This document shows positions 2,686-16,869 of a DNA stretch of 16,869 nt, piece after piece (position 1 is the first letter of the stretch; every line of letters starts with the position of its first letter). The notes under the pieces were generated by a model. The model did no database searches. It was not told the DNA's origin and saw only the letters and a list, made by a program, of their open reading frames with translations. A program made the position numbers and the translations under genes. This DNA is from Thermoguttaceae bacterium. GTDB taxonomy: Bacteria; Planctomycetota; Planctomycetia; Pirellulales; Thermoguttaceae. Where the stretch lies: assembly GCA_017454585.1 (NCBI GenBank), contig JAFTCU010000350.1, positions 1 through 16,869 on the forward strand, written 5' to 3'.

Positions 2686-2745
2686 AAAAAAAGAACCTTC
2701 CTGAAGATTCTGTTTTGAATTAAAGCAGATGATTCAGGAAGGTTC
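2686..2745 (-). terminator. Terminator between convergent recJ and BI-1 gene
   Basis: A 13-bp perfect stem pairs 2693-2705 (GAACCTTCCTGAA) with 2733-2745. The 27-nt loop contains a further 4-bp pairing (2709-2712 with 2726-2729). Read on the minus strand it is followed by seven T residues (2686-2692), a classic intrinsic terminator for the minus-strand gene. On the plus strand the sequence after the stem is not T-rich, so it would stop recJ transcripts less efficiently. Confidence 0.85.
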
Positions 2746-2772
2746 AAAACGTTTCTGGGAAACCCCAATTAA

Positions 2773-3471
2773 TCACGAATCACGATTCAGGTAAAGCTGG
2801 AGAATGTACCAGAAGAGCAGCGCGACCGAGGCGAAGAGCGCGAGGGCGGCACCAACGTACTGATCCGTGCGGCAGTAAAGCAAAACGTTTGACGTGTCGT
2901 ACAGAATGTACAGGCAGGCGAACGCGATCATCAGGTACGTGAAAATCGGTCCGAGCGCGAATCCAAAAATAATCGACGCGACAATGAATCCCAACGCGGC
3001 CAGCCCGGCGAAAATCAGACCGGTCCGCAGGAAAGAAAAGTCAAAGCGCGTTACCATGACGGCGACCGTCAGGAAGCAGAAAAGTGCGACCGTTGCGGTG
3101 GCGGCCTGCGGAATGACGCCCGGGTGGTAGTTTTTCGCGATGAACAAAATCGGAACGAAAATGACCGCTTCCGCAGCAACGTAAAGACCAAGCCCCAAGT
3201 ACTGTGTTACGAGACTGGTCGAGCTGAACGCCCATTTATCCGCGATCCAGCTCACAAACATAAAAGCGCCAAGCACAATGAGCCAGGAATACTTGCCGCT
3301 GAGCATCATCGCAACAAGGTTTTCGATTCCCGGAATGTTCAGAAGCAACGCTTCCAGAGCGACGAAGGCGCCGACCGCTCCAGCCAGATGCAGGTACGTG
3401 CGTGTGATGAACTTCCCACGCTCCTCAGCTGACCAAACTTCAGCTGCTTCGTACTGTTCCATACTGCTCAT
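2773..3471 (-). CDS. Bax inhibitor-1 / YetJ-YccA family membrane protein
   Basis: This 232-residue integral membrane protein has about seven hydrophobic segments after a soluble N-terminus of about 25 residues, the layout and size of the bacterial BI-1 (TMBIM) family. Members such as Bacillus YetJ are pH-sensitive calcium leak channels. The signature near the C-terminus is present: LYDTSNVL followed by TDQYVGAALALFASVALLFW. It includes the two aspartates (in YDTS and TDQY) that form the pH-sensing pair in YetJ. The start ATG is preceded by AAGGAG (plus-strand 3478-3483) with 6-nt spacing. The gene has its own promoter and a strong terminator, so it is probably monocistronic. Calcium transport here is inferred from the family only. 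Confidence 0.9.
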   Translation of the reverse strand: MSSMEQYEAAEVWSAEERGKFITRTYLHLAGAVGAFVALEALLLNIPGIENLVAMMLSGKYSWLIVLGAFMFVSWIADKWAFSSTSLVTQYLGLGLYVAAEAVIFVPILFIAKNYHPGVIPQAATATVALFCFLTVAVMVTRFDFSFLRTGLIFAGLAALGFIVASIIFGFALGPIFTYLMIAFACLYILYDTSNVLLYCRTDQYVGAALALFASVALLFWYILQLYLNRDS

Positions 3472-9423: not shown

Positions 9424-9432
9424 TTAAATCCG

Positions 9433-9460
9433 AGCGCGGTCGTTTCAGGCCGCGCTTTAT
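9433..9460 (+). terminator. Terminator after the coiled-coil protein gene
   Basis: A GC-rich stem pairs 9433-9441 with 9448-9456 (AGCGCGGTC/GGCCGCGCT, one G-T pair). It has a 6-nt loop and a short T-rich tail, and begins 10 bases after the stop codon. Confidence 0.75.
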
Positions 9461-9467
9461 CATTAAT

Positions 9468-9544
9468 ACGGGGATAACGTTTCCAGCATCATCTTTTGAT
9501 GAGGAATGATGAAATCGGGACGAGGCAGAAGGCGTCGTCCCCGT
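9468..9544. repeat. Degenerate copy of the GC-hairpin repeat
   Basis: Two diverged inverted units can be recognised. 9468-9493 begins ACGGGGATAACGTTTCCAGC and 9519-9544 ends GGCGTCGTCCCCGT. They resemble the units at 12626-12750 and 15771-15945. The outer ACGGGG/CCCCGT ends are intact, but the hairpin stems carry mismatches and the AT linker is replaced by an unrelated ATGATG-rich stretch. It lies in the 311-base gap between the coiled-coil gene and the PEP-CTERM gene, between a terminator and a promoter. Confidence 0.6.
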
Positions 9545-9613
9545 AATTTTAATTTGTCTTTTCTGAAATTTTCTCTTGTTTCTCAAAAATTTTTGTCTTT
9601 TTTCGTCAAAAAT

Positions 9614-9642
9614 TTTACAAAACCTGGAAACCCGTGTATAAT
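9614..9642 (+). promoter_or_regulatory. Promoter of the PEP-CTERM protein gene
   Basis: TTTACA (9614-9619) and TATAAT (9637-9642) are separated by 17 bp. Like the promoter at 7810-7839, the -10 box sits in the context GTGTATAAT. It would give a leader of roughly 85 nt before the ATG at 9735. Confidence 0.7.
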
Positions 9643-9734
9643 AATATCATAATTTGATGTTTAAAAACAGATGGGATTTTATCCATTCTGATGAACAAAA
9701 TACGTTTTCGATGTCACAATTTTGAGGATAGAAG

Positions 9735-12614
9735 ATGAAAAACACCTTTGTAAACAGCGTGATTCGTATATCTTTCCTGCTTGGCGCTTTGATTTTGGGG
9801 AGCGCTGCCTGTCAGGCGGATATTGTGATGTCGCTCAACAAGATCACGACCGAACAGGACCTCTTTTCAAACGTCCCCAACGCGAGCAGCGTCAAATACG
9901 CCATCAACTACGGCGGAAAAGCGGTCGATAACCCCATTGACGGCGTGACTTTTGTCAACCAGAGCGGCTCAAGCTACTATACCGTTTATTCTCATACCGA
10001 GGGCGAGAGCGTGGTCCTCAACGGGTACAACACGCCCCAGCAGTCGTACACTTCGCGCAGCAAAACAGGAATTTCGTCTCATGGCGGCAACTCCTGGGCT
10101 GGCGCTCCAACGGCAGACATGAATAATCTTCTGTCCTCAATGATCTACGTTGGCGGTCAGATCCCGGATACTCCGACGGCGTTGACGTTAGGCAATCTGG
10201 AGACGGGTAAAACCTACACGGCCCGCGTTTTGACCCGCCCCTGGGATACGAACAACGCGAATCGGAAGCACACCTTTTCCATTGACCTGAACGCGGACGG
10301 CGTCGGCGATACGTTCCTCTATGGCGGAAATCAGGTGACCAGCCAGTTGGTCAGTGAAGATCAGCCCTTTGCGGGTGAAGCCTACAACGGTGCGTATGCG
10401 GTCGATTTTACCTTTACCGCACAAAGCAACACGGCAACGATCCAGCTTGTAGAGGGGGCAGTTGATAACCAGTCGTGGCACAATTACGCCGTCATGCTTG
10501 TGGAAAACAGCAACGCGCGGGTCAAGCCGGCGACGCCGACGATCTATAACGGCAGCTTCGAGGCGGACAAGTGGACCCTTCAGAATAATGCCGATAACGG
10601 TCACGGTTACTTGGACGGAAGCAATACGGGCGTCATTTCCGGCTGGCAGTTCACCAACCTGACCAATACGGCCATGCGCGCCGGTCTGGCGTGGGTCGGC
10701 TGCCCCTGCCAGCATTTCCTGAATAATCAGACCCCACCGGATGGGACCCAGGTCGCCTGGATCCAAAGTGGAACTAATGTTGACGCCCGCATCTATCAGA
10801 ACGTTTACGGGTTTGACCCCACGGATAAGGACACGGTGTACCGCGTTTCGATGGACCTTGGCGGAAGAACCGAGACCGGCAACCCGATCGCTTCGGTCTT
10901 TATCGGGGCGGATCAAGCCACAGAAAACGTATATATTAATTCCAAAACCATTACAAAAGGCCAATTTAAAGAATACGGCGCGGTTTTCGTTCCGAATGCC
11001 GAAACGCAGACGATCGCCATCCGGAACCTGACCGATGGGGACACGTCCCTGCTGGTGGATAACGTCCAGCTCAAGGCGTACAGCCTGAAGACCTTCTTCA
11101 CCGACAATTACGACGTCAACGGCAACGCGACCGGGAACAATATCGGCGGGCCTTCCGCCAACGACAAACCGGGCCGGTTCGGCGGTATACTGGGCGCGAT
11201 GGGATACACCTATAAAGCGAACGGCGCACATCAGATCCAGGTCGGAAACGCCAACGACTGCGGCGGCCAGTGCAAGGAGTCTCTTTTCCTGGTGGCCCAG
11301 GAAGGCAATACTCAAAGCCACACTTCACCGAACTGCAACTTCGCCAACATTGGTGCCCTGTCGGCTGCGGATGAAGGCGGACGCATGTACGACATGACCT
11401 TCCGCATCGCCCCGCAATTCGACGATAGTAACGCGTCGAACTGGGCGGCCATCATGTTTGGTACGACGGAAGCGGGCAGATACTCCAACGTGAACGGTAC
11501 CGACGGTCTTGGGATCCTGTTCCGTCAAAACGGCGGGATCCAGATTTTCGAACGTAACGCCCTGGTCAGCGGCGGCGATTTACCCGCGGGTACGTTTACG
11601 GTATCGCATAATTACCAGGAAGAAGGACTGGTCGGCTGGGCGGATGTGCGGATCGTCTATTACGTTCCTGATTTTAACGGCACATCTCCCGTTGATGTCA
11701 GTCTCTATGTGAACGATCAGCTGATCAAATCCTTCCAGACCACTAAAGGTTTTACCGACAACTTTATTCATTTTGAGGCATATTCCGCAACGGCCGGCGC
11801 CTGGTATCACAGCCTGATCGATGATTTTGCGCTGAAATCCTCCGCGGAACTTTATTATGACGTTCCCAGAATTACGGACATGAGTCGCGACTGGGAGACG
11901 AACGGCCTCGACAAGAAAGAGGAGATCACCTTTGACGCCCCGCGTGAAGGCTCCAACGAAGCGACGCATACCGGCGGCCTTGACATGAAAGTCGATACGA
12001 CGCTGGACGTCGGGCCGGACCTGACGTTCACCCAAGCCGGCGCGGTTACTGGAGGCAAAACCCTCACCAAGACCGGCGAGGGCAAGCTCGTGATCGATAC
12101 CGCGCCTGATACGGTCAATGAGGCCAATGTGGTCGTGGCCGAAGGCGAATTTGACCTGGAAGGCACCGTCGCGGGCAACGTCGAGATGAAGCCCGGCACG
12201 ACGTTCTCTCCCGGAAATGACGTCGGACCGGCGATCGTCGAAGGCGATTTCAAGGCGGGCGAGAACGTCACGCTGCTCATGGAGGGGGATTCGGACCAAT
12301 TTGACACGTTGGCTGCCAACGCGTTTGACATTGACGACGGGACGATCATCGAATTGGCGCTGGGGGCTATTACTCACGGCGCGGAGTTCGATTTGTTCAC
12401 CAATACGTCCGACGCCGGCTTTACCCCAGAGCAGGGCGCTCCTGATTTCTGGAAGAGCCTTCTGCTTGAAGAACTGCCTGTTTATATGGATTTGTCGGTT
12501 ATCGACAACCATATCGTCAGACTTGGCATCGACGGTAACGCCATCCCGGAACCAGCGACGTGGGCGTTGCTCCTGCTTGGCGCTTTTGGTCTGCTCTGCT
12601 GGCGGAAGAAATAA
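9735..12614 (+). CDS. Secreted PEP-CTERM surface protein with beta-strand repeat
   Basis: This 959-residue exported protein has no predicted enzymatic role. Residues 1-28 are a signal peptide, with likely cleavage after A28 (ACQA/D). An N-terminal domain (about 29-255) contains a DxNxDGxxD calcium-type loop at 184-192. A second domain (about 268-452) opens with YNGSFEADKW, typical of carbohydrate-binding-like modules in PEP-CTERM proteins. A third, lectin-like beta-rich region covers about 455-715. An autotransporter-associated beta-strand repeat (LTKTGEGKLVI...VVVAEGEFDLEG) lies near 775-815. The C-terminus (938-959) is a PEP-CTERM signal: PEPATW, hydrophobic helix, CWRKK. Such proteins are processed by exosortase and displayed or released at the envelope; the exosortase is not in this window. 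Five cysteines occur as GCPC (323, 325), CGGQC (509, 513) and C534. GAGGA lies 6 nt before the ATG. Confidence 0.88.
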   Translation: MKNTFVNSVIRISFLLGALILGSAACQADIVMSLNKITTEQDLFSNVPNASSVKYAINYGGKAVDNPIDGVTFVNQSGSSYYTVYSHTEGESVVLNGYNTPQQSYTSRSKTGISSHGGNSWAGAPTADMNNLLSSMIYVGGQIPDTPTALTLGNLETGKTYTARVLTRPWDTNNANRKHTFSIDLNADGVGDTFLYGGNQVTSQLVSEDQPFAGEAYNGAYAVDFTFTAQSNTATIQLVEGAVDNQSWHNYAVMLVENSNARVKPATPTIYNGSFEADKWTLQNNADNGHGYLDGSNTGVISGWQFTNLTNTAMRAGLAWVGCPCQHFLNNQTPPDGTQVAWIQSGTNVDARIYQNVYGFDPTDKDTVYRVSMDLGGRTETGNPIASVFIGADQATENVYINSKTITKGQFKEYGAVFVPNAETQTIAIRNLTDGDTSLLVDNVQLKAYSLKTFFTDNYDVNGNATGNNIGGPSANDKPGRFGGILGAMGYTYKANGAHQIQVGNANDCGGQCKESLFLVAQEGNTQSHTSPNCNFANIGALSAADEGGRMYDMTFRIAPQFDDSNASNWAAIMFGTTEAGRYSNVNGTDGLGILFRQNGGIQIFERNALVSGGDLPAGTFTVSHNYQEEGLVGWADVRIVYYVPDFNGTSPVDVSLYVNDQLIKSFQTTKGFTDNFIHFEAYSATAGAWYHSLIDDFALKSSAELYYDVPRITDMSRDWETNGLDKKEEITFDAPREGSNEATHTGGLDMKVDTTLDVGPDLTFTQAGAVTGGKTLTKTGEGKLVIDTAPDTVNEANVVVAEGEFDLEGTVAGNVEMKPGTTFSPGNDVGPAIVEGDFKAGENVTLLMEGDSDQFDTLAANAFDIDDGTIIELALGAITHGAEFDLFTNTSDAGFTPEQGAPDFWKSLLLEELPVYMDLSVIDNHIVRLGIDGNAIPEPATWALLLLGAFGLLCWRKK

Positions 12615-12625
12615 TCAAGATCTTT

Positions 12626-12750
12626 ACGGGGACGACGCTTCCAGCGTTGCCTCAAAAACCAACATCTACGGGGACGACGCTTCCAGCGTCGTCTTTCATT
12701 CATAATTCTTAATTCATAATTGGAGGACGACGCTGGAAGCGTCGTCTCCG
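12626..12750. repeat. Composite hairpin repeat element A
   Basis: The element has two direct units, 12626-12652 and 12668-12693. An AT-rich linker of the ATTCATAATT type follows (12694-12721), then an inverted unit (12726-12750). Each unit contains a hairpin core ACGACGCTTCCAGCGTCGT (or its complement) beside a GGGG/CCCC end. The two direct units are exactly 42 bp apart. 12669-12693 and 12726-12750 form a 25-bp inverted repeat with one mismatch. The element fills the gap between the 3' ends of the PEP-CTERM gene and the zinc-ribbon gene, so it may act as a two-way terminator. Open frames across it give repetitive Arg/Trp-rich or Asp/Ser-rich peptides and are not genes. Confidence 0.9.
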
Positions 12751-12754
12751 CAAA

Positions 12755-13063
12755 TCAACGGGATTGCATCTGACGGGCTTGATCCGCGGAAATGACCTGC
12801 GGGCCGTCGCCGGCAGTTTTCTCGTAAAAGCCGTCGCCGCTCTTTTTATACTGGGTGAAACCATGATCGGCAAGGTTCTTCGGGCTGAGCATATCCCGCT
12901 CGCTCTTGATCGACGCGACGCGGATGTTCAGCATCTTGCGCACGGGCCGCCCGCACGTCGGACAGACGGTCAGCTCGGCCTCGTCCCGATTCTGCAAAAC
13001 CTCAAAAACGTCCTGGCACTCCTCGCCTTTACCCTCGGTGTGGCCGTACTTGAAAAGTGGCAT
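12755..13063 (-). CDS. Small FmdB-like zinc-ribbon protein
   Basis: This 102-residue protein resembles the FmdB/CxxC-CxxC-SSSS family of putative regulatory zinc ribbons. It starts MPLFKY, continues VFEVLQNRDEAELTVCPTCGRPVRKML, and has a hydrophilic tail. Normal members begin with YEYxCxxCG; here that first knuckle is replaced by YGHTEGKGEEC, leaving His8 and Cys16. The second pair, C34 and C37, is intact. It could bind zinc with a His/Cys set or not at all. The start is supported by AAGGA, 6 nt upstream. The gene is divergent from rubrerythrin, and its 3' end abuts repeat element A. The molecular role is unknown. Confidence 0.7.
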   Translation of the reverse strand: MPLFKYGHTEGKGEECQDVFEVLQNRDEAELTVCPTCGRPVRKMLNIRVASIKSERDMLSPKNLADHGFTQYKKSGDGFYEKTAGDGPQVISADQARQMQSR

Positions 13064-13122
13064 TTTGGTCCTTCTTTCTGAATGATCGATCCTGTTTATC
13101 TGACCTCAAAAGAGATTAATTA

Positions 13123-13150
13123 AGTTTAGCACAAAGAGAGATTTTTTCAA
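13123..13150 (-). promoter_or_regulatory. Possible promoter of the zinc-ribbon gene
   Basis: On the minus strand TTGAAA (13145-13150) and TAAACT (13123-13128) are separated by 16 bp. A TGC immediately before the -10 box gives an extended -10 form. It lies 60 bases upstream of the ATG. Confidence 0.45.
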
Positions 13151-13277
13151 GAGGGGGCGGAGATGTAACGAGCACGACGTTTACAAGCATTGTCTTGGGT
13201 GTCCCACAAAAGTTTCTCAGATTTTTTCTTTTTTTTGAAAAAAACTTCCATTTGCGGTAGTCAAACGCGAGGAAATT

Positions 13278-13286
13278 TGTTATAAT
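13278..13286 (+). promoter_or_regulatory. Extended -10 promoter of rubrerythrin
   Basis: TGTTATAAT (13278-13286) is a perfect extended -10 element. A weak TAGTCA at 13258-13263 is 17 bp upstream of the TATAAT. It is preceded by long T and A runs (about 13220-13247) and predicts a leader of about 40 nt. I saw no PerR- or Fur-like operator. Confidence 0.6.
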
Positions 13287-13333
13287 AGATAAAAATTGCC
13301 CAGTTCCCACCCAGTTCAACCCCTCGAAAAGCC

Positions 13334-13906
13334 ATGAATATTCGCGGAACCCAAACGGAAAAAAATCTGATTCAGGCCTTTACTGGCGAGTCACAAGCGC
13401 AGAACCGGTATAAATTTTACGCGTCTCAGGCGGAAAAGGAAGGCTTTGATGTCATCGCCCGGACGTTTCACGAACTGGCGGCGCAGGAAGGCGAACACGC
13501 GAGATGTTTTTTTGAGTATTTGCAGGGTGGAAAAGTGGAATTCTGCATGACAATTCAGAGCACGAAAATTGGCGATACACGAGCGAATCTTCGCGCTGCG
13601 GCCCAGATCGAGCGGGTAGAATGGTCGGATCTGTACCCGAAATTCGCGGAGGAGGCCCGGTCCGAGGGTTTCGACGAGGTCGCCAACCGGTTCCAGTCCA
13701 TCGCGTTTTGTGAGCGACAGCACGAGATTCGTTTCTCGCAAATCCTCAAACGGCTTGAATCCAATACGCTTTTTCACTCTGATTCCTCCGTTAAATGGCA
13801 GTGTACCCGCTGCGGGTACGTCCTGGACGGGACCGACGCACCAGAAAAATGTCCGGCCTGTGATGGAAACAGAGGAGCGTTTCAAATGATCAATGATGAA
13901 TTATGA
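13334..13906 (+). CDS. rbr: Rubrerythrin
   Basis: This 190-residue non-haem iron peroxidase reduces hydrogen peroxide in anaerobes and microaerophiles. The N-terminal four-helix ferritin-like domain carries the di-iron ligands: E19 in GESQAQNRY, E52 and H55 (EGEH), E93 and E96, and E127 with H130 (ERQHE). The C-terminal rubredoxin-like domain carries C157, C160, C173 and C176 (CTRCGY and CPAC). Length and layout are normal for the family. There is an extended -10 promoter but no clear Shine-Dalgarno before the ATG. The last four residues (NDEL) and the stop codon are encoded by an AT-rich repeat module, so the C-terminus may have been rewritten by repeat insertion. It suggests a low-oxygen lifestyle. 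Confidence 0.95.
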   Translation: MNIRGTQTEKNLIQAFTGESQAQNRYKFYASQAEKEGFDVIARTFHELAAQEGEHARCFFEYLQGGKVEFCMTIQSTKIGDTRANLRAAAQIERVEWSDLYPKFAEEARSEGFDEVANRFQSIAFCERQHEIRFSQILKRLESNTLFHSDSSVKWQCTRCGYVLDGTDAPEKCPACDGNRGAFQMINDEL

Positions 13907-13963
13907 ATTCACTCGAACGTTTGAACTTAATAATTCGTCATTCTTCATTCATAATTCATAATT
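13892..13963. repeat. AT-rich repeat module overlapping the rubrerythrin stop
   Basis: 13892-13909 and 13946-13963 form an 18-bp inverted repeat with two mismatches, including a perfect 11-bp core (AATTATGAATT/AATTCATAATT). The sequence matches the AT linkers of repeat elements A and B, but without the GC hairpin units. The left arm contains the last codons and stop of rubrerythrin. The right arm ends 6 bases before the lipoprotein start codon. Confidence 0.65.
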
Positions 13964-13969
13964 AGAAAA

Positions 13970-14854
13970 ATGGTTTCCCGATTTTTTAATTCCATTCCGC
14001 TCATCCTCTTTTTCGTGGGGATCATGTGCCTTTCGACGGGGTGCAGGTCGGGAAATCCGTTCCGAAGGAATCCGGAGATACCTCCGGGCACGAAGCCAGC
14101 CATCTCGGGGCAGGCAACGATCTCGGAAATCATCTCGATGGTGAACGAGAACGTGTCGCGCATTGACAGCTTCTCGACCAAAGACGCGACCCTTAACGGC
14201 CCAGGCGTTTTCAATCTCAAAGGCGAAATTGCCTTTAAACGTCCGGGGTACTTCCGGCTCATTGGTCACCATGCCGTCACAGGACAGGAACTGGACGTTG
14301 GACGGAATGCGGACGTGATGTGGATGTGGATCGGAAAAGCCGAGCCGAAAGCGATGTACTACTGCAGGAATGTGGATTACCCGCAGTGTGAGGCGAATCT
14401 GGATCTTTCCATCAACCCGATGTGGGTGATCGACGCAATGGGGTTTGGGATGCTTGACCCTTCAGCCAGCTATGAGGGGCCAATCCCGGTTCCTAATGAT
14501 GCCAGACATCTGGAACTGCGTGTTCACGAAACGACTGCCAGCGGCGAGTCACGTACACGCTCGATCGTGATCAATCGTGACTATGGGCTTCCGGCTGCGG
14601 TGCGAATTTATGACAGGTTCCGATCGCTTGTAGCTGACTCTCGGGTCCTGAGTTTCCGCAAAGATCCCGCAACGGGAATCATCCTTCCGACGGGCGTCGA
14701 AATTAATTGCCCGAAAGAAAATGATGGCAAGGGGATGAAGTTTAGCATCCTGTACGGCTCGCCGACGTTAAATCAGCTGGACGCTTCCAACCCGCACTTG
14801 TGGTCGATGCCGCAATATCCTGGTTACCCGCCGACAAATATGGCGCAGAAGTAA
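13970..14854 (+). CDS. Lipoprotein, LolA/outer-membrane lipoprotein-sorting-like
   Basis: This 294-residue exported lipoprotein has a hydrophobic signal segment ending in the lipobox LSTGC, with lipidation at Cys25. The mature protein begins with a proline-rich linker. The next part has the pattern of LolA/LolB-like or LppX-type proteins: a repeated 'base state' helix (ISEIISMVNENVSRIDSFST), then beta strands such as LKGEIAFKRPGYFRLIG, DVMWMWIG and ILPTGVEINC. Such folds bind lipids or lipoproteins. I infer the fold from this strand pattern only and give no gene symbol. The ribosome binding site is weak because the AT repeat module ends just upstream. The downstream phosphoesterase starts 20 bases after the stop and probably shares the transcript. 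Confidence 0.7.
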   Translation: MVSRFFNSIPLILFFVGIMCLSTGCRSGNPFRRNPEIPPGTKPAISGQATISEIISMVNENVSRIDSFSTKDATLNGPGVFNLKGEIAFKRPGYFRLIGHHAVTGQELDVGRNADVMWMWIGKAEPKAMYYCRNVDYPQCEANLDLSINPMWVIDAMGFGMLDPSASYEGPIPVPNDARHLELRVHETTASGESRTRSIVINRDYGLPAAVRIYDRFRSLVADSRVLSFRKDPATGIILPTGVEINCPKENDGKGMKFSILYGSPTLNQLDASNPHLWSMPQYPGYPPTNMAQK

Positions 14855-14874
14855 TTTGTACCCTAAAGGAAATT

Positions 14875-15765
14875 ATGATGTTACGCCGTCATTTTCTCAC
14901 ACTTCCCGCCGCTGTGCTCTTGAGTCTTCGGGCTGGTTTGACTCTCGGAGCCGATGGGGTGGGCGTTGACCCGCACAAAATCGTTTTCATCGCCGACACG
15001 CACGTCGGGCCGGACGTCCCGAACCACGCGGCCAACCTGAAACGGATCGTGGACGAGATCCTCGCCATGGATCCGCGTCCCGCCATGATCTTCATTCTGG
15101 GCGACCTGGTTTCCACCTACGGGAAATCGGAGGAGTACCTCGAAATGAAGGGCCTCATGCAGCCGATCACCGACGCGGGCATCCCGTGGCATCTGGTCGT
15201 TGGAAATCACGACACGCGGGAGCGCATGTTCGAGGTCTTCCCGGAAAAACGCATGACCGTTGACGGGATCCCCGGTAAGCAGGTCGGCGTGGTCGAGGCG
15301 GACGGTGTGGACTTCATCATTCTGGATTCCCGCATGGACGATACGCGGGCGTATATGGCCGAAAAAGACAAATTCCCGGACCGGCGGCCGTGGGACGGAA
15401 CGATGGAGACCGAGTCGATCGCGTGGCTTGAAAAGACGCTTCCGGCACGCGAAAAGCCGTGCTTCGTGCTGGCGCACCACCCGCTCGAACAGACGAAAAT
15501 CGGTGAGCTGCTCGGGAAATTCCCGTGCGTTCAGGGTTACCTGTTCGGGCATAACCACCAGTATCGGCGTTACGATTTCACGTGTGAGCCTGGCCCCGTC
15601 CGTGCGTTTGCGTTTCCGACGACGTCGAACCGTCAGCTCACGCCGAAGGAGCCGAACGGGTTCATGGTGATGGAGATCCAACCAACGCAGTTCGAGTTCA
15701 CGCTCCACGCGCTTGACGAAAACCATCCGCTCGCCGGCGATGAAAAAGTGATGGAGAAAAAGTGA
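14875..15765 (+). CDS. Tat-exported metallophosphoesterase
   Basis: This 296-residue calcineurin-type phosphoesterase has all metal-binding motifs: ADTH (D41, H43), GD (D77), GNHD (N111, H112), AHH (H201, H202) and GHNH (H226, H228). The N-terminus MMLRRHFLTLPAAVLL is a twin-arginine signal (RRHFL), so the enzyme should be exported folded, perhaps already metal-loaded. The substrate is unknown; the family includes nucleotidases, phosphodiesterases and acid phosphatases. AAAGGA at 14865-14870 supports ATG 14875 or, with better spacing, ATG 14878. A longer frame from 14800 overlaps the lipoprotein gene and would bury the Tat motif, so I reject it. Repeat element B starts 6 bases after the stop. 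Confidence 0.88.
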   Translation: MMLRRHFLTLPAAVLLSLRAGLTLGADGVGVDPHKIVFIADTHVGPDVPNHAANLKRIVDEILAMDPRPAMIFILGDLVSTYGKSEEYLEMKGLMQPITDAGIPWHLVVGNHDTRERMFEVFPEKRMTVDGIPGKQVGVVEADGVDFIILDSRMDDTRAYMAEKDKFPDRRPWDGTMETESIAWLEKTLPAREKPCFVLAHHPLEQTKIGELLGKFPCVQGYLFGHNHQYRRYDFTCEPGPVRAFAFPTTSNRQLTPKEPNGFMVMEIQPTQFEFTLHALDENHPLAGDEKVMEKK

Positions 15766-15770
15766 TTCCT

Positions 15771-15945
15771 GCGGGGACGACGCATCCTGCGTCGTCTCTA
15801 ATTCATAATTCTAAATTTTTAATTCACAATTAAAAGACGACGCTGGAAGCGTCGTCCCCACAGAGGTTGGTTTTTGAGGCAACGCTGGAAGCGTCGTCCC
15901 CGTAGATGTTGGTTTTTGAAACGACGCTGGAAGCGTCGTCCCCGT
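15771..15945. repeat. Composite hairpin repeat element B
   Basis: One forward unit (15771-15796) and an AT-rich linker (15797-15835) are followed by three inverted units: 15836-15859, 15879-15903 and 15921-15945. The three inverted units are spaced exactly 42 bp apart: about 21 bp of hairpin, then about 21 bp of spacer with TTGGTTTTTGA. This is the order of element A read on the other strand, plus one extra unit. The middle unit has the same GGCAACGC variant as 12626-12652. The forward unit has GCATCCTGC where others have GCTTCCAGC, which keeps the stem paired. The element lies between the 3' ends of the phosphoesterase and MoxR genes, ending 5 bases before the MoxR stop. Confidence 0.9.
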
Positions 15946-15950
15946 ATTTT

Positions 15951-16869
15951 TTACTTCAAAATCTCTGCCAGGATCTGGTCTTTGGAAACCCCTTCCGCTT
16001 CGCCGCGGAAATTGAGGAAGATCCGGTGCCGGAGCGTCGGAAGGGCCATTTTCATCAGGTCGTTCTTCGTTACTTCCAGCCGCGTTTCAATGGCTGCGGA
16101 GAATTTTGCCGCAAGCACGAGTCCCTGTACGCCGCGCGGGCCAATGCCGTACCGGACGAAGTCTTTGACCGACTGCGGCGCCTTGGCCCCGGTCGGCTGC
16201 GACTTTTCCATCAGGGCGACACACCACTGGCACAAATCGTCCGAAATCGTAACGTTCCGGATGATGTCGCGCATCTTCAGCACACGCTTCCCGTCCATGA
16301 CGCTGCGGATCATGACCTTCTCGGCGCCCGTAGCCCGCTGAAGAATTTGCGCCATTTCCGCCCCGGTGGGCATTTTCATCTTTGTCTGGAAGAGGAAACG
16401 GTCCACCTGCGCCTCCGGAAGCGGGAACGTCCCTTCCTGTTCGAGTGGGTTTTGCGTCGCGATGACCGTAAACGGAGACGGAAGGTCAAACACCTCGGAC
16501 GAAACCGTTACGGCCCCTTGCTCCATCGCTTCAAGCATGGCCGACTGCGTGCGCGGCGTCGTGCGGTTGATTTGGTCCACGAGCACGATGCTCCCGAAAA
16601 TCGGGCCTTTCTGGAATTCAAACGCACGGCGTCCCTGCGCGGTTTCCATAATGACGTACGTCCCGATGATGTCGGTCGGCATCAGGTCCGGCGTACACTG
16701 GATCCGGGTCGAGGAAAGCGTGACGATCTGGGAGAGGGACGTCCCGAGGAACGTTTTCCCGGTCCCGGGCAGACCTTCCACGAGCACGTGCCCGCCGAGG
16801 ATCAACGCCGCCAGAGCCGTCCGAACGGCTTCGTCCTGGCCGATGACCGCTTTTTTCAGCTCATTTTCG
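15951..16869 (-). CDS. MoxR-family AAA+ ATPase (5' end beyond window)
   Basis: 305 residues are visible and the start lies beyond the right edge. The frame stays open to the edge and reads KKAVIGQDEAVR, the hallmark MoxR N-terminus, so a TTG at 16805 is not the start. Walker A GLPGTGKT, sensor 1 (VIATQNPLEQEGTFPLPEAQVDRF) and a C-terminal lid with GPRGVQGLVLAAK are in place. MoxR proteins are ATP-driven chaperones, often encoded beside a DUF58 protein and VWA-domain partners and linked to metal insertion or stress. Those partners are not visible; the gene ends at repeat element B. The Walker B motif reads LVDQINR where MoxR proteins have DEINR. The Gln codon is at 16572-16574, and its Asp neighbour is intact. 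This may reduce or abolish ATP hydrolysis. Confidence 0.9.
   Translation of the reverse strand, partial: ENELKKAVIGQDEAVRTALAALILGGHVLVEGLPGTGKTFLGTSLSQIVTLSSTRIQCTPDLMPTDIIGTYVIMETAQGRRAFEFQKGPIFGSIVLVDQINRTTPRTQSAMLEAMEQGAVTVSSEVFDLPSPFTVIATQNPLEQEGTFPLPEAQVDRFLFQTKMKMPTGAEMAQILQRATGAEKVMIRSVMDGKRVLKMRDIIRNVTISDDLCQWCVALMEKSQPTGAKAPQSVKDFVRYGIGPRGVQGLVLAAKFSAAIETRLEVTKNDLMKMALPTLRHRIFLNFRGEAEGVSKDQILAEILK

What the first reader, a model, noticed from the sequence alone, without database searches (positions are those of the whole stretch)
12626..15945. Two-module intergenic repeat element with 42-bp phasing, copied in opposite orientations at convergent gene ends
Elements at 12626-12750 and 15771-15945 share one architecture when one is reverse-complemented: single hairpin unit, ATTCATAATT-type linker, then two or three inverted hairpin units at exact 42-bp intervals. 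42 bp is four turns of B-DNA, so all tandem units face the same side of the helix. Both copies fill the gap between convergent genes, close to both stop codons. Neither carries an open frame that looks like a gene. The structure fits a REP/BIME-like or non-autonomous mobile element, possibly used as a two-way terminator or a binding site for a DNA-bending protein.
Basis: partly seen in the sequence, partly recalled or inferred. Interest (0 to 1): 0.7.

Follow-up and report, generated by a model that had tools for sequence, protein, structure and literature searches.

The report
REP-like hairpin repeats at gene ends
A 28-base hairpin sequence has spread to dozens of places in a rumen bacterium's genome, often just after the ends of genes and often in mirrored pairs around other repeats; it looks like a new family of a known kind of bacterial repeat rather than a helix-phased device.

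Summary
The two elements are real and far beyond chance. They belong to a dispersed family: in the nearest held genome, Thermoguttaceae MAG RGIG3279 (G001), the core has 72 sites at up to 1 mismatch, against 0 for the reversed control. The unit is about 28 nt: an unpaired tag (TTACGGG), then a 9-bp stem with a TCC loop. Of 15 close pairs, 11 are inverted with tags outward. In 26 of 61 units the tag side lies within 20 nt of a stop codon (random 5.3). The other side abuts another repeat or an inverted unit in 51 of 71 (tag side 8 of 71). This fits REP/REPIN-like elements with NIME-like mosaics. The 42-bp phasing is not a family trait: 0 of 21 close pairs in G001 show it, and the window's two arrays are copies of each other (69 of 72 nt). 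The "linker" is a separate 7-bp tandem repeat. A decayed third copy was missed, at 9467-9546. No RAYT carries the unit beside it (31 loci checked), and the GTAG and CGTC tags are lacking. A terminator role stays open.

The parts
12624..12753 (.). Element 1: two units (+), 7-bp-repeat linker, one inverted unit, between the convergent ORFs ending at 12614 and 12755
   Evidence: inner pair folds as one 30-bp hairpin
12624..12651 (+). Unit 1a: tag plus hairpin, with the GCGTTGCC variant
   Evidence: 2 mismatches
12666..12693 (+). Unit 1b
   Evidence: 0 mismatches
12694..12725 (.). Linker of element 1: (ATTCATA)n 7-bp tandem repeat
   Evidence: period 7, 12698-12721
12726..12753 (-). Unit 1c, inverted
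   Evidence: 0 mismatches
15769..15947 (.). Element 2: one unit (+), 7-bp-repeat linker, three inverted units at 42-nt spacing, between the convergent ORFs ending at 15765 and 15951
15769..15796 (+). Unit 2a, with a two-sided stem change (A-T for T-A next to the loop)
15797..15835 (.). Linker of element 2, (ATTCATA)n-like
15836..15863 (-). Unit 2b, inverted
   Evidence: 0 mismatches
15878..15905 (-). Unit 2c, inverted, same GCGTTGCC variant as unit 1a
15920..15947 (-). Unit 2d, inverted
   Evidence: 0 mismatches
9467..9546 (.). Decayed third element with TACGGGG...CCCCGTA ends, in the tandem gap 9424-9734
   Evidence: sequence; right core 9520-9538, 2 mismatches; 70% identity to a G001 composite at C63:11407-11502
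13930..13963 (.). (ATAATTC)n 7-bp tandem repeat without caps

Best explanation
The elements belong to a lineage-specific, REP-like family of dispersed palindromes. The unit is a 9-bp hairpin with an unpaired TTACGGG tag on its 5' side. It occurs singly or as REPIN-like inverted pairs, tags outward, around varied interiors: 7-bp tandem repeats, the repeat that flanks another RAYT gene, and other palindromic modules. This resembles dRS3 hairpins around RS elements in neisserial NIMEs. Shown: copy number, orientation, position just after stop codons, varied interiors, and similar composites at different sites. Inferred: the hairpins were moved as single strands by a Y1 (RAYT-type) transposase acting in trans or since lost; insertions just past stop codons are tolerated; once there the hairpin acts, if at all, as an RNA 3'-end structure (stabiliser or weak terminator). 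The 42-bp array is a local tandem duplication that was copied between the window's two sites.
For: 72 sites at up to 1 mismatch in G001, control 0. Tag side within 20 nt of a stop codon in 26 of 61 (random mean 5.3, maximum 13 in 2000 trials); foot side 3 of 61. 11 of 15 close pairs inverted with tags outward, 0 with tags inward (p = 0.0001). Foot side abuts a repeat or inverted unit in 51 of 71, tag side 8 of 71. Composites with similar (ATTCATA)n interiors at four G001 sites and both window sites. The copied block in the window ends at the unit edge. At the metallophosphoesterase 3' end the window has units plus 7-bp repeats, G001 C28 a decayed half-unit plus another module.
Against: No Y1 gene with the unit beside it: 0 of 2 in G001 and 0 of 29 others examined; the two G001 genes carry other repeats. 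No GTAG or CGTC tag. No clean empty site was found and no target duplication was seen by eye. The foot-side polarity is partly geometry, since the tag side is 57% coding. Of 72 sites, 7 lie in my coding calls. Bare-stem matches in 31 of 118 other family genomes exceed the control, 48 against 2, though 0 of the 29 read have the TTACGGGG tag.
Confidence: 0.6

Rival explanations
1. Two-way intrinsic terminator cassette kept by selection at gene ends: each unit stops transcription entering from its tag side.
For: Tag side hugs stop codons. Among 31 gene ends with a unit, 0 have another terminator-like hairpin within 90 nt, against 226 of 1136 ends without (p = 0.002). By my looser rule (4 T in 6) 10 of 31 unit hairpins pass.
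Against: T-run of 4 or more after 12 of 71 stems, near the random 10.8%. The window scan finds 0 terminators at 12500-16100. An insertion would push an older terminator out of the 90-nt view. The third element lies downstream of another 10-bp hairpin that already follows the upstream gene (9432-9457). Units also occur in divergent gaps (8) and coding calls (7).
Confidence: 0.2
2. Docking site, NIME-like: the hairpin is a fixed target beside which different mobile repeats insert and are exchanged by a recombinase or phage enzyme.
For: Varied interiors on the foot side. Units lie near four families more often than near random intergenic sites: 15 of 83, 10 of 49, 9 of 72 and 8 of 34 against 116 of 5000. 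The GCGTCG|TTTAAAGG join recurs. Same gene end, different cargo in the window and C28.
Against: Most copies of those families have no unit nearby, and six other families show little or no association: 1 of 27, 4 of 65, 0 of 16, 1 of 43, 1 of 13, 0 of 29. No PF02371 (IS110-type) transposase in G001. The tagged unit is absent from viral contigs.
Confidence: 0.15
3. Helix-phased array for a DNA-bending or binding protein: 42 bp is four helical turns and the spacing is selected.
For: All three window spacings are exactly 42.
Against: The two arrays are copies of each other. 0 of 21 close pairs in G001 are 42 apart, and the spacer 12-mers are absent from 2.56 Mb.
Confidence: 0.03

Closest known systems
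REP / REPIN (GTAG- and CGTC-tagged palindromes and inverted doublets; PMC3733652, PMC3116915, passages and named sections read)
   Same: 20-40-nt palindrome, many intergenic copies, inverted doublets with tags outward, position near 3' ends in tandem and convergent gaps, some copies inside ORFs.
   Different: Tag is TTACGGG, not GTAG or CGTC; no RAYT beside it; interiors include other repeat families.
Neisserial intergenic mosaic elements, dRS3/RS (PMC3898611, PMC9778887, passages read)
   Same: Short inverted hairpins flank varied repeat sequences in intergenic mosaics.
   Different: Different hairpin sequence and phylum; smaller copy number than the nearly 700 dRS3 reported in meningococci; no phage or integrase linked here.
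Atypical hairpins beside Y1 class 3 genes of Planctomycetes (PMC6006769, passages read)
   Same: Atypical 5' foot, high copy number possible, same phylum.
   Different: The foot reported there is CnGA; here no Y1 gene lies beside the unit.
Heptanucleotide STRR repeats of cyanobacteria (recalled; the search led to no paper that I read)
   Same: The linker belongs to a set of 7-bp intergenic tandem repeats.
   Different: Different sequences; here some copies lie between hairpin caps.

Membership tests
REP (sensu lato) | 20-40-bp palindrome in many copies, mainly intergenic | tested here: met
   72 sites at up to 1 mismatch; 61 intergenic, 7 in coding calls, 4 at segment edges
REP (sensu lato) | Position close to 3' ends of flanking ORFs | tested here: met
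   26 of 61 with tag side within 20 nt of a stop, random 5.3
GTAG or CGTC REP | Unpaired terminal GTAG or CGTC tag | tested here: not met
   Conserved unpaired flank is TTACGGG; the CGTC of this unit lies in the stem
REPIN / RAYT system | Inverted doublet as the common unit | tested here: met
   11 of 15 close pairs inverted, tags outward; many single units too
REPIN / RAYT system | Cognate Y1 transposase gene flanked by the repeat | tested here: not met
   0 of 31 Y1 loci examined, of more found in 81 of 119 genomes; the window's own genome is not held
NIME | Short inverted hairpin repeats flanking varied repeat sequences | tested here: met
   Pairs around (ATTCATA)n, the GGAGTGCGG module, the CGGAGGGCCGG module and unrelated short loops
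NIME | dRS3 sequence ATTCCC(N8)GGGAAT | tested here: not met
   Consensus of the unit
Intrinsic terminator | G+C-rich stem followed at once by a T-tract | tested here: inconclusive
   Stem present; T-run of 4 or more in 12 of 71; 0 in the window scan

The most novel reading that the evidence does not exclude
An independent counterpart of neisserial NIMEs in Planctomycetota: a hairpin cap that marks the boundary between a gene's stop codon and a changeable repeat cargo. Capping lets different mobile families, including the repeat of another RAYT, occupy the same gene end in turn without harming the gene, and a Y1 enzyme acting in trans exchanges cargo at the hairpin foot.
Probability: 0.2. Interest if true: 0.6.

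Novelty: new member of a known kind. Interest (0 to 1): 0.35.

Why it matters
It adds a family seen so far in one lineage to the REP-like repeats, with the mosaic capping known from Neisseria. No tagged copy was found in the other family genomes whose matches I could read, so the family may be young, and comparing strains could show how such hairpins and their cargo move, which is unresolved for REP families without a linked transposase.

Tried and rejected
Rfam: no match in the window at gathering scores. A viral-contig scan for the tagged unit found 0. The genome-contig scan found 23 stretches, 22 in RGIG3279; the Phycisphaerales one (L022) has no tag TTAC and I take it as chance. Other genomes of the family: 48 matches at up to 1 mismatch in 31 of 118, against 2 for the reversed control. 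Of 29 that I could read, 2 have a G-rich 5' flank and none the TTACGGGG tag; a distant relationship of the bare stem is not excluded. A composite with the (ATTCATA)n interior has no match in the other 7 genomes of the genus. One piece (79 bases) of the GGAGTGCGG module matches only G001 among 119; the CCTGAAAGG module also matches 3 relatives. Inversion between elements 1 and 2 was considered: in C28 the lipoprotein-metallophosphoesterase pair is inverted relative to the Zn-ribbon gene, but the breakpoint is not at element 1, so I do not claim it.

Limits and mended errors. Gene calls in G001 are my own, not a curated annotation. Tiles (2.56 Mb of about 4.8) were chosen partly because they hold hits, though they hold 72 sites at up to 1 mismatch, the number found in the whole genome. 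One unit near a contig end was dropped before the 71-unit counts; a further 10 were dropped before the 61-unit counts, being inside coding calls or lacking a neighbour gene. The counts at up to 3 mismatches (134 + 122, control 10 + 19) count many sites on both strands, because the core is nearly palindromic; I do not use them. My scripts read minus-strand units as plus with 3 mismatches; redid both, and only its numbers are used. Of 53 tile sites with 3 mismatches only 6 have the G-rich flank, so that level is mostly noise.
Full report
What is there. The window encodes ordinary bacterial genes: by Pfam a RecJ-like protein, a Bax1-I protein, a PEP-CTERM protein, a Zn-ribbon protein, a rubrerythrin, a metallophosphoesterase and an AAA_3 ATPase, among 10 proteins scanned. 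The tagged 24-base unit was sought in genome contigs: 22 of 23 stretches belong to one MAG, Thermoguttaceae RGIG3279 from goat reticulum. Blocks of the window match that genome (G001) at 83-95%, so the window comes from a near relative. The window's own genome is not held.

Observation. The 19-nt core occurs eight times in the window with up to 2 mismatches; shuffles give 0.01. Seven form elements 1 and 2. The 42-nt spacings are exact, but 72 nt of element 1 repeat element 2 in reverse with 3 differences, including an odd variant, and identity ends at the TACGGGG edge. The two arrays are therefore one observation, not two.

Anatomy. In 72 ungapped units the conserved block runs from TTACGGG (unpaired) through a 9-bp stem, GACGACGCT/AGCGTCGTC, with a TCC loop; beyond it no base reaches 60%. 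Among 80 tagged units with up to 3 mismatches, two-sided stem changes occur at 2 of 9 pairs, in 2 units each; one-sided G-T changes are commoner. That is weak support for selection on pairing.

Distribution. G001 holds 72 sites at up to 1 mismatch, reversed control 0: 38 in tandem, 15 in convergent and 8 in divergent gaps, 7 in coding calls and 4 at edges. By gap, 12 of 159 convergent and 34 of 1039 other gaps hold one (p = 0.014); without two gaps under 60 nt, 11 of 159 and 33 of 1039 (p = 0.037). The tag faces a stop codon within 20 nt in 26 of 61 (random 5.3, at most 13 in 2000 trials), the foot in 3 of 61. The unit hugs gene ends in a fixed orientation; convergence as such matters little.

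Pairs and interiors. Of 15 close pairs, 11 are inverted with tags outward, 4 point the same way, none has tags inward. With up to 2 mismatches there are 21 close pairs, none spaced 42. The four pairs spaced 60 hold (ATTCATA)n. Of four inverted pairs spaced 217-221, three hold a module with ends GGAGTGCGG and one a CGGAGGGCCGG module. The GGAGTGCGG module lies on both sides of one of the two Y1 transposase genes of G001, so it is probably that enzyme's REPIN; the other Y1 gene is flanked by a CCGTGGG family. Repeat coverage over 60 nt is 52% on the foot side, 13% on the tag side and 12% in intergenic DNA at large; the tag side is 57% coding, so part of this polarity is geometry. Units lie near four repeat families in 15 of 83, 10 of 49, 9 of 72 and 8 of 34 loci, against 116 of 5000 random intergenic places; six other families show 1 of 27, 4 of 65, 0 of 16, 1 of 43, 1 of 13 and 0 of 29. 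Unit loci also cluster: 12 of 56 lie within 2.5 kb of another (random 3.5, sd 2.5, maximum 14 of 2000 trials).

Same gene end, different cargo. After the metallophosphoesterase stop codon the window has a unit, 7-bp repeats and three units. G001 C28 has a decayed half-unit (TTCCAACGTCG) joined to the CCTGAAAGG module, a join seen at several of the 60 module ends printed.

Function. The inner pair of element 1 folds as a 30-bp hairpin and a G001 composite as about 27 bp; in element 2 the pair is interrupted by internal loops. T-runs of 4 or more follow 12 of 71 stems, random 10.8%, and the window scan names no terminator; by a looser rule 10 of 31 pass. Ends with a unit have no other terminator-like hairpin within 90 nt, 0 of 31 against 226 of 1136, but an insertion would displace an old one. 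I judge an RNA 3'-end role possible and a canonical terminator unproven.

Comparison. PMC3733652 (abstract, passages, sections 6, 7 and 15 read) reports that REPs lie mainly between tandem and convergent ORFs, that most convergent-gap REPs of two genomes lie under 20 bp from both 3' ends, that inverted dimers are common, and that CGTC REPs lack a dedicated transposase. Those traits match; the tags do not. PMC3116915 (passages) describes inverted doublets as the moving unit. PMC6006769 (passages) reports Y1 class 3 genes in Planctomycetes with atypical hairpins of foot CnGA. PMC3898611 and PMC9778887 (passages) describe 20-bp dRS3 repeats around diverse RS elements, the closest architecture. 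I found no paper on this family in the listings, which show only top hits; the ten listed have no occurrence of Thermoguttaceae. A resemblance of TTAC to the IS608 target site is recalled, not tested.

Verdict. A real, dispersed, REP-like repeat family with NIME-like capping. The phasing idea fails, the mobile-element idea stands, and the enzyme is unknown.

Noticed in passing
window 13930-13963; G001 tiles: Several 7-bp tandem repeat families fill intergenic gaps of G001: TGAATTA, GAATAAT/GAATAAC, ACTACTG and GGAGTTA types.
   Followed up: partly
L124:2628-2897 (G001 C43:22628-22897) and L198:13058-13405 (G001 C70:193058-193405): Two Y1_Tnp genes, each flanked by its own repeat family: GGAGTGCGG type and CCGTGGG type.
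   Followed up: partly
L103:12301-13571 (G001 C106:72301-73571) and L094:11416-13132 (G001 C63): Two single genes are each flanked on both sides by (ATTCATA)n composites; one product ends in an HNH-like stretch and starts like DUF262 (names recalled), the other has BspA-like repeats (recalled).
   Followed up: no
L111:18738-18846 (G001 C70:138738-138846): Two units 90 nt apart inside a called 1208-aa ORF, so some units may be translated.
   Followed up: no
L235/L236 (G001 C12:2676-3476) against window 2701-2780: G001 has about 700 bp more than the window in the RecJ/Bax1-I convergent junction; its content was printed but not analysed.
   Followed up: no
L093 (G001 C28) against window 12754-15761: The lipoprotein-metallophosphoesterase pair is inverted relative to the Zn-ribbon gene, and no match to the rubrerythrin gene was listed there.
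   Followed up: partly
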